Shown one piece after another: positions 47,901 to 50,900 of a stretch of 64,000 bases of DNA (position 1 is the first letter of the stretch; each line of letters opens with the position of its first letter). The translations under genes were made by a program, and so were the position numbers. The stretch spans positions 9,956,001-10,020,000 of the forward strand of contig NC_092573.1 in NCBI RefSeq assembly GCF_037975245.1. The letters are read 5' to 3'. The notes under the pieces were generated by a model. It saw nothing but the letters and a program-made list of their open reading frames with translations, did not search any database and was not told where the DNA came from. This stretch comes from Apostichopus japonicus (lineage: Eukaryota; Echinodermata; Holothuroidea; Aspidochirotida; Stichopodidae).

Positions 47901-50900
47901 TAACCTCAAAACTCTCTAATACTCGATTTTAAAGTTAACCGCTTCCTGATTGACTGAATATGCTAGCTTTGAAAATTGGCTCCTAAGGCCTCACTACAAG
48001 AAGAGGATCGTGTTGGCAAGCCGCTCGTCCACCGAGGCTTGGAAACATTAACTGGTGTACGTGTGGCAACTGTGCGATAATGCCTACGGAGGTGGAGTGT
48101 GTTTGATGCCACGAAGTGGATAATTTTGCGAAGCTTCTTTCATCCCCAGAAGGCAATTTTACAGTCAATACAGACTTTGAAACCGTTAGCCAAAATAAAG
48201 CGGTACTAAGAGCTACCTTAGTCATGAGGAACACCATCTGTGGCCACGCAAGGAAGATTCCATTGAATAGGATATGGAGTAAGCCTAAGTCTGGTAAGGC
48301 ATGATGTATGCTGAATGTTACAGTCAGCCTACATTGTTACAATTACTTTAGCCTAGGCCCAACTTCAGTGTGCTTGTTTAGCGTAGCCTAGGCCTTCTTT
48401 TTATCAAAAATATTAAGAAAACAGAAATCTTTATTTTTTCATAACTATGACCTTCAGGTGCCTTGTTAATATTTAACCTACGTTGGGCTTATAGGAAATT
48501 GCAAGGCCTTCTAAAGTTCTAGCCCTAGCAACAGCAGCTGTGGATAACATCTCTGAAGTGTCATTATATGTCAGTGCCACCGTGAATTGGTCATAGAAGT
48601 GCTTCAAAGAGAGTTGTGGACTCTCTGACATCATCAATATGGAATTTCAAGCCTATAATGTAATCAATGGCAGCTTACTGTGTATTGTGGCGAGGCCTTA
48701 GGAGCCAATTTTCAAAGTGAGCGTAATCAACAAAATAGCAACCGGTTAACTTAAAAATCAAGTATTAGAGAGTTTTGAGGTTTGTTGTTTTGAGGAAGTT
48801 GTTTTTAATTGTAAAATTACTGTCAAATTCTGAAGTGGCAAATTTTGCCATAGACTACATAGTTACCATATATGCTGGCCTAGGGATCATGCAGTGCACA
48901 CTTCTGTACGGTATACAACCACCTAACATAGCGACTATGAAAATGTCATGGGCTATCAATACAGTGTGAATGTAGGAAATCAATGTAAAATGCAAGAATA
49001 ACAATACCGCATTTTTTTTAAACTGATTTACTTGAGGCCCTTAAATGATGTAGTAAATATTACGAATGGATCTTGACGACACAAAAACAAGCCTCTTAAA
49101 GGCAAAGTAATTGCTTAAAACTTTTATGAGCCCCTGTCGTAAGTAACCATTAACAGTTACCTAATTCAAATTTATTCTTCAGTTTCATTCAAAGTTTAAC
49201 AATTTTTTCCTTTTCCCCAACCACTATAGGCATGTTGGCCCAACCCCAGCCAGTTCTGACCCCTTTCCCATTACAGTATGTCAATAACTTTTTACACAAT
49301 GTCGATTAAATACTCAAGCACCAATGGCTACTTTTGACAAAGTATGAAGTTTTCCCCCCTTTAAAAAAATTTAACTGAAGAACTTAGTCAAAGTGACGGG
49401 GAAAATTTGTGCAGTTTGCTATGAAGAAATTACTGTTGTATGAATGCACATTTTACTTCAGCAACTCTCAATGCAGAGAGAAGAAACACACTGTGAGATG
49501 AACAATCCTTTTCAGAATCAGAGAGCTATGTTAGCTTCCCACAGTGACACAATTCATAAATTGTCTCTAATAACATTTGGTGATCAAAACAATGATTCAA
49601 CTATTCATGAAACAATTCAACTACAACTTCCTACTATGAGGGCTTCCTGTTGAAATATGTGTTAACAAGGCTTAAGTTATGATATTTGAGTGCACAATGT
49701 ATATGGTAGCCTATAGCACAAACTTCTTTATCTCTACAGAGGGGACAGTAATGTTACACGTAGTTTCATTTAAACAGCATACTTTGCGATCTTTTTGTGT
49801 TCAAGAATGGGGAACTGTTTTTAACTCTGTACTTTGACTTGATTGTTATGAATAATTTGTTTTCAAACAATTTCAATCATCTTGTAAGAAGCTAGTTGTG
49901 GTTTCATGAAAAGAAAAATATTCATTCAAAAAACTGTTTGTTATGTAAGCATAGGCCAAGCTGTGAGTGTGTGCATTTGGGGTTTGTTTCCACCTAAAAC
50001 AATTTGCAACCACCCGCCCTGCAAGCAAAGTTTTGCGTCCCTGGCTAATAGATCGCGTCCCAGACGCAGAATCCTGCATTCATAACTATGCTGGGGATGG
50101 CTTTGAAAATCCTAAAACTGAAAATTTTCCACTATTGTTTATTATCCATATAGTTACCATTCATGCAAATAAAAATGTTACCACACACTGCATACTACAT
50201 TCATATGTGATCACACATACTTCTCAACAGTTATAAAATATGTAACTGAACTTTTCTATCATGGAAAAGTTCATGATAGAAAAGTTTGAGTTTCAGTGGT
50301 CCTTGATTGGTTTTTTAAAGCTAGCTACCTTCCACTTGAGCATAATAAATTAAAAATTTGGTGTTTTAGTGCAGCAGTCTGCAAACTTTTAATTAAAAAC
50401 GCGACCCAGGATCTTCCATGAGGACTGCGCCACAGACCCGACCCTCAGAACTGATGCTAAGAATGCATGAAAGCTAGCTTCATTGATGGATCTGATGTGA
50501 CAAGAAAATAGCTTCATCGATTTCCATCAGCAATCTCCAAAATCTGGGAATGAATTTTCTGTGGTTTGGAAAAAATCCAGCAACCCACCAGTAACTTTCT
50601 ACAACCCACTTTTTTGGATCTTGCACCAAACTTTGGGGACAGTCATAGTAGAGGAATCGTAGCAACACTTCATCACTTCAGTATGATCCAATGGACCTCC
50701 ACCCAAGCGATAAATACTTCTTTGCTGTTCCAAATACTGTACCTTACATGACACCTTGAAATTTTCAATATTCATACCTGTATTTCAGATATCAAATTTT
50801 GAGACATTTAAAATTCATATTATTATTTCAGTCAGCAATTTTTTGAGGGGTTGTTGTTCATACACACAGTCATACTGTACACAGTAATCTACTGTATATA

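What the first reader, a model, noticed from the sequence alone, without database searches (positions are those of the whole stretch)
47902..48782. Transposon-like element with ~95-bp arms carrying a P2X7-type cysteine-rich domain
Seen directly: long inverted arms and, between them, a frame with WCTCGNC, MPTEVEC, CHEV and a downstream VLRATLVM helix, broken by one TGA exactly where a Cys is expected. Known: the P2X7 intracellular domain has W-C-x-C-G-x-C and C-C motifs that bind zinc, and similar domains occur as stand-alone proteins in invertebrates. Inferred: such domains may be mobilised by DNA transposons, which would explain their patchy spread. The remaining frame is decayed here, but intact relatives may exist elsewhere in this genome.
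Basis: partly seen in the sequence, partly recalled or inferred. Interest (0 to 1): 0.75.

Follow-up and report, generated by a model that had tools for sequence, protein, structure and literature searches.

The report
Dead Kolobok transposon with P2X7-like exon
The element is an old, broken copy of a small "cut-and-paste" DNA transposon that carries part of a gene related to the tail of the P2X7 receptor, a link already described for Kolobok transposons, so the sighting is correct but belongs to a known kind.

Summary
The arms and the cysteine-rich frame are real, and the element recurs at 39 other loci listed in this 672-Mb genome (38 fetched). Intact ends read TTAA|AGGAATAACG..., which fits the Kolobok superfamily: TTAA target site, 5'-RR terminus. 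The window copy begins at 47856, has lost part of its left repeat and the KolX start, and lacks its last ~45 bp on the right. The frame is exon 1 of KolX, the second protein of Kol0-type Kolobok elements: 36.3 bits (E 9.6e-11) against a profile of KolX exons from other families; best of ten shuffled windows 8.6. Pfam P2RX7_C alone misses it (13.4 bits, cut-off 23.5). Where a transposase hit lies within 8 kb of KolX, the two are convergent (34 of 34 and 18 of 18). I found no transposase for this family, and its copies decay as if neutral. The link P2X7 ballast = KolX was published in 2022 (PMC9587614). So: a new non-autonomous member of a known kind, in an intron of a MEK1/MAP2K1-like gene.

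The parts
47851..47854 (.). TTAA, probable target-site duplication at the left end (one base outside the aligned terminus)
   Evidence: 24 of 40 termini reached in 39 copies have exact TTAA directly outside, 36 of 40 with at most one mismatch, against 14 of 1822 4-mers (0.8%) and 9.2% in the flanks. The window end itself counts as one mismatch (TAAA).
   Evidence: 91.7% to positions 1-143 of the majority sequence of 30 aligned copies
48000..48059 (+). junction: inner left repeat and KolX N-terminus lost here; roughly its last 45 bp read as KolX exon sequence that the majority sequence lacks
   Evidence: exact 38-mer only in the window's own locus among 77 loci; window:48000-48066 has one match in the genome, itself
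48053..48278 (+). remnant of KolX exon 1 (zinc-binding N-terminal half of the P2X7 ballast domain)
   Evidence: 36.3 bits, E 9.6e-11 against a profile of 9 KolX exons of other families; broken by TGA 48104-48106 and out of frame with the family's ending further on
48279..48285 (+). GTAAGCC, splice-donor-like end of exon 1, same place as the intron of two-exon KolX genes
   Evidence: 35 of 37 copies aligned there (window included) have GT; GT at this place in L054, L055, L057 and AG before exon 2 in L055 and L057, placed by eye
48060..48782 (+). body of the element, positions 423-1129 of the 1174-bp majority sequence
   Evidence: 86.2% identity
53739..53876 (-). exon of a MEK1/MAP2K1-like host gene upstream of the element
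   Evidence: 95.7% over 46 aa
34610..34696 (-). next exon of the MEK1-like gene; the element lies in the ~19-kb intron between, antisense to the gene
   Evidence: this match starts at the query residue after the one that ends the exon at 53739

Best explanation
It is a decayed copy of a non-autonomous Kolobok DNA transposon family, about 1.17 kb long with 216-bp inverted repeats and TTAA target sites. The family arose by internal deletion of a two-gene (transposase + KolX) Kol0-type element and kept KolX exon 1, its splice donor and part of the intron. It was moved in trans by a transposase made elsewhere, which recognised the inverted repeats. The KolX piece was a passenger: in the majority sequence the KolX start and the zinc motif lie in different frames, and copies diverge about equally at all codon positions. 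Shown: repeat family, ends, TTAA constancy, KolX homology, two-exon KolX relatives, transposase-KolX pairs in the same genome, neutral-looking decay. Inferred: trans-mobilisation, origin by internal deletion, and the parent, which I did not find.
For: 39 other loci, 38 fetched. Ends TTAA|AGG..., TTAA exact at 24 of 40 termini against 0.8% of flank 4-mers. A transposase + KolX element seen in two copies also ends ...CCT|TTAA on its right side (L053/L073). KolX exon 1 in the window: 36.3 bits, E 9.6e-11; next window hit 8.5 bits; ten shuffles at most 8.6. The family's exon finds 43 hits that I judged to be KolX exons of other families, 25-50% identity, best E 1e-11 (C17:15719623). KolX with a transposase hit within 8 kb: 34 of 89 and 18 of 43, all convergent; shift controls average 0.46 and 0.30, maximum 3 (some elements are in both lists). 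Codon-position divergence of the exon core 12.1, 11.9, 12.5%; non-synonymous share 0.77 against 0.758 expected. KolX = P2X7 ballast fold in print: PMC9587614.
Against: No autonomous element with the same inverted repeats was found. Of the 100 termini listed (of 230), 0 lie within 10 kb of the 93 hits of one transposase fragment. Nine arms followed about 4 kb inward, and four of these a further 9 kb, gave no transposase match. Only 1 of 10 copies with both ends reached has exact TTAA on both sides. I set the boundary after seeing TTAA, and no empty site was examined, so duplication is not proven. The Pfam P2RX7_C score is below cut-off. The KolX start (33 codons) shows slightly more third-position change (14.0, 13.4, 16.4%; non-synonymous share 0.746 against 0.77), which I did not test for significance.
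Confidence: 0.9

Rival explanations
1. A piggyBac-type non-autonomous element (also TTAA) that captured a KolX-like gene. Moved by a piggyBac transposase.
For: TTAA at the ends. [quoted passage not shown]
Against: Terminus is 5'-AG (purine-purine), which the paper gives as the Kolobok mark against piggyBac. The piece here is the N-terminal Cys-rich half, while the paper says those piggyBac proteins lack most of the conserved Cys. KolX in this genome pairs with transposases that match Mutator/MULE models.
Confidence: 0.05
2. KolX in this and other transposase-less families is kept because it does something for the element (for example helps transposition or counters host silencing), so these are KolX-only helper or satellite elements.
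For: Several TTAA-flanked repeats carry KolX without a nearby transposase hit: this one, a 3.2-kb family (probably most of 61 similar hits among the 150 scored; three copies read), and L070-L072.
Against: In this family the exon core decays as if neutral and is out of frame with the KolX start in the majority sequence. The 61 similar hits each carry a TGA in the matched stretch. Internal deletion leaves gene pieces behind by chance.
Confidence: 0.04
3. A domesticated stand-alone host gene for the P2X7-like domain, flanked by an unrelated repeat.
For: Stand-alone ballast proteins exist across animals (PMC7016195, passages).
Against: The exon repeats together with the arms in copies on many chromosomes and is broken in the window.
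Confidence: 0.01

Closest known systems
Kol0 lineage of Kolobok DNA transposons (Kolobok-1_XT type), KolX protein; Kojima & Bao 2022, PMC9587614
   Same: TTAA, 5'-RR terminus, KolX with P2X7 ballast motif; the genome also holds transposase + KolX elements
   Different: This family is ~1.17 kb, has no transposase, only KolX exon 1 (with a donor-like intron start), 216-bp inverted repeats, and only broken copies among those read
P2X7 receptor cytoplasmic ballast domain (Pfam PF20478, P2RX7_C)
   Same: W-C-x-C-x-x-C ... C-C ... C pattern and following V-L helix; an intact KolX of this genome matches P2X7 chains at E 4.3e-22
   Different: Only the N-terminal half; two of its six motif Cys lost in the window copy; below Pfam cut-off
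Short non-autonomous inverted-repeat elements (MITEs) with TTAA
   Same: Small, many copies, no transposase; pairs of the same termini 175, 235 and 333 bp apart exist
   Different: Longer and still carries a recognisable gene piece

Membership tests
Kolobok superfamily | TTAA target-site duplication | tested here: met
   24 of 40 termini exact TTAA, 36 of 40 with at most one mismatch, flank control 14 of 1822 exact and 9.2% with at most one mismatch; duplication itself not proven by an empty site; exact on both sides in 1 of 10 copies
Kolobok superfamily | termini 5'-RR ... YY-3' | tested here: met
   TTAA|AGGAATAACG at both ends; criterion from PMC9587614
Kolobok superfamily | own DDD/E transposase of Kolobok type | tested here: not met
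   0 of the 100 listed termini (of 230) within 10 kb of a transposase hit; nine arms followed inward without one. Hence called a non-autonomous member, by ends and gene remnant only
Kol0 lineage | second gene KolX (ballast-type) | tested here: met
   exon 1 only: profile 36.3 bits in the window; family exon finds other KolX exons at E down to 1e-11
Pfam P2RX7_C (PF20478) | score over the gathering cut-off 23.5 | tested here: not met
   13.4 bits, E 0.075, with TGA read as Cys
Pfam P2RX7_C (PF20478) | seven zinc-site cysteines | tested here: not met
   number from PMC9587614; which seven is recalled and read from the alignment: six in the exon-1 half, the seventh in the missing half. The window keeps 4 of those 6
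piggyBac superfamily | TTAA target site with non-RR termini | tested here: not met
   terminus is 5'-AG; contrast stated in PMC9587614

The most novel reading that the evidence does not exclude
This genome holds several separate TTAA-flanked repeats that lack a detectable transposase but keep a KolX exon, one of them young (3.2 kb, 97-98% identical in three copies). KolX, or RNA from it, may help such elements in a way that does not need the full protein, for example by titrating or modulating the transposase or the host response.
Probability: 0.05. Interest if true: 0.55.

Novelty: new member of a known kind. Interest (0 to 1): 0.3.

Why it matters
It confirms, in one more genome and with counts, that P2X7-like 'ballast' domains travel as the KolX gene of Kolobok DNA transposons, convergent with the transposase wherever the two were found close together. 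It also suggests that gene models named after P2X7 in animal genomes (a label I recall, not checked here) may be transposon pieces. The general point is already published.

Tried and rejected
Pfam scan of the window frame: not significant; replaced by a profile of KolX exon 1 from other families (9 of 12 sequences kept after dropping 3 identical ones, one row running past the exon end). Rfam over the window: nothing. Looking for an autonomous parent with the same inverted repeats: nine arms out of those listed (40 scored of 277 candidates) followed about 4 kb inward, four of them a further 9 kb, and the 100 listed of 230 termini compared with 93 hits of one transposase fragment: none found. 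One apparent longer copy (L060) has further inserted stretches and no transposase match. Selection on the KolX exon core: no sign; expectation there assumes transitions weighted 2:1 and ignores relatedness of copies. The alignment for searches used 30 of 39 copies; nine were dropped by eye after as short or poorly matched at the ends (L026, L040, L042, L043, L047-L049, L051, L052). One locus listed (C17:1631321) was not fetched. Terminal-repeat divergence (22-23%) exceeds that of the exon (12%); I take this for alignment noise at ragged ends and did not use it. In one search some copies, L020 among them, show the 38 bases 'aligned' at very low score (21.5 against 182 for the window itself); I treat this as noise because one search finds no second match in the genome. 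Naming the species by assembly size: two paper searches, no hits.

Full report
What was checked.

It is a repeat. The 881 bp gave 115 matching pieces in the 671.6-Mb genome G000, from 40 scored of 253 candidates; by my count they fall into 39 loci besides the window. I fetched 38 of these (L015-L052); all 38 match the core. Of 78 possible ends of 39 copies, 40 could be reached by alignment; 24 have exact TTAA directly outside and 36 TTAA with at most one mismatch, against 0.8% and 9.2% of 4-mers in the flanks. Of 10 copies with both ends reached, only one (L019) has exact TTAA on both. I chose the boundary after seeing TTAA, and TTAA is a palindrome, so the test shows constancy, not duplication. 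The majority sequence of 30 aligned copies is 1174 bp, with inverted repeats of 216 bp at 98.6%. The terminus as a 30-mer occurs 230 times with up to 3 mismatches, reversed control 0. Among the 100 termini listed, three pairs are only 175, 235 and 333 bp apart, so tiny versions exist too.

The window copy. It matches positions 1-143 at 47856-47999 (91.7%) and 423-1129 at 48060-48782 (86.2%). So it has lost the inner left repeat and the KolX start, and its last ~45 bp on the right. One search gives it 19.2% from the majority sequence, flanks of the alignment included, with 10-33% for the other copies. Between the two blocks lie 60 bp, of which roughly the last 45 are not in the majority sequence; the stretch has no second match in the genome. 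There it reads ...[13 protein letters not shown], close to RLSNLDWCICGGC of an open KolX frame in L055. I infer that this is old KolX sequence which other copies have lost. In the majority sequence the KolX start (position 327) and the zinc motif (431) are in different frames.

The frame is KolX exon 1. Pfam P2RX7_C alone gives 13.4 bits (cut-off 23.5). But P2RX7_C is over its cut-off at 150 of 150 scored places (471 candidates) in this genome, and in none of 14 control genomes. A profile of exon 1 from nine KolX sequences of other families gives 36.3 bits, E 9.6e-11, at exactly this place; the next place in the window has 8.5 bits (E 0.047) and ten windows shuffled base by base in 200-base blocks at most 8.6. 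The family's exon finds other KolX exons, at 43% identity and E 1e-11 for the best (C17:15719623-15719856). The nearest relatives (L054, L055, L057) have a second exon downstream, and GT at the place where the window family has GTAAGCC (splice sites placed by eye). The C-terminal half was not found in the copies by tblastn. Of the six zinc-site Cys in this half (assignment recalled and read), the window keeps four; a further Cys of the family, not shared with P2X7, is lost as well.

Where KolX comes from. In L053 and L056 an intact KolX lies tail to tail with a transposase ORF that matches Pfam Mutator (E 3.6e-8 and 1.8e-7), while KolX scores 115 and 123 bits for P2RX7_C. Over lists copied, a transposase hit lies within 8 kb of 34 of 89 KolX hits (first part of the list), 0 of 61 (the repeated class with one TGA) and 18 of 43 (chosen as outside this family). 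All 34 and all 18 are convergent; shift controls (200 each) average 0.46, 0.14 and 0.30, with maxima 3, 2 and 3. At least three elements are in both lists (exon 1 and exon 2 of one gene), and some loci are duplicates of each other, so the pairs are not all independent; the transposase list rests on one 166-aa query. An intact KolX matches the cytoplasmic end of P2X7 in solved structures at E 4.3e-22. One transposase + KolX element, seen in two copies 99.8% alike, ends ...CCT|TTAA on its right side; its left end lies outside the stretch read (L053/L073).

Does the KolX piece work? No sign of it. Divergence of the exon core from the majority sequence is 12.1, 11.9 and 12.5% at codon positions 1, 2, 3; the non-synonymous share is 0.77 against 0.758 expected without selection. 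For the 33-codon start the figures are 14.0, 13.4, 16.4% and 0.746 against 0.77, a slight lean the other way that I did not test. In the search no copy had one unbroken match over the whole 76-aa piece.

Setting. The window carries exons of a MEK1/MAP2K1-like gene on the minus strand. The element lies in the intron between the exons at 53739-53876 and 34610-34696, which are consecutive in the query, with KolX antisense to the gene.

What is known. Kojima and Bao 2022 (PMC9587614; outline, passages and the Background section read) report that KolX of the Kol0 Kolobok lineage has the P2X7 ballast fold, that P2X7 arose by fusion with KolX, and that Kolobok uses TTAA and has 5'-RR termini. Rump et al. 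2020 (PMC7016195; passages) described stand-alone ballast domains across animals; the word stem 'transpos' does not occur in its main text. A search for 'KolX' in the held library finds only the 2022 paper; 'Kolobok' with 'P2X7' finds it and one review seen in the listing only. What is added here is one more non-autonomous family, the counts of convergent pairs, and the neutral-looking decay; I made no search for this family in repeat libraries, which are not on hand.

Limits.

Noticed in passing
window 24733-55524, minus strand: Exons of a MEK1/MAP2K1-like kinase gene; the element lies in its ~19-kb intron between 53739 and 34696.
   Followed up: partly
L067, L068, L069 (about 1446-4654 in L067): A young 3.2-kb TTAA-flanked family (97-98% identical, ends TTAA|AGTGGCCATGACACGA) with a KolX C-terminal piece carrying a TGA; probably the source of most of 61 similar hits among the 150 scored for P2RX7_C. 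Only three copies were read.
   Followed up: partly
L070-L072: Another repeat (83-95% identical pieces), in L071 starting TTAA|AGGGGCTATACA, with a 104-141-aa open frame of the KolX C-terminal half and no transposase match in the 4.2 kb read.
   Followed up: partly
G000:C18:13963035-13963367, C19:10647216-10647390, C3:25775038-25775272: Pairs of the window family's termini only 175-333 bp apart, so very short elements.
   Followed up: no
G000:C17:1624017-1658138: Four copies of the element within 34 kb, probably a local duplication.
   Followed up: no
L059, L061, L062, L066 with L074-L077: Single inverted-repeat arms of the family without a partner end within about 13 kb.
   Followed up: partly
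window 36514-37810: Long low-complexity repetitive open frames (P-P-G-Q-N and G-T-P-T-G-T-L-S type).
   Followed up: no
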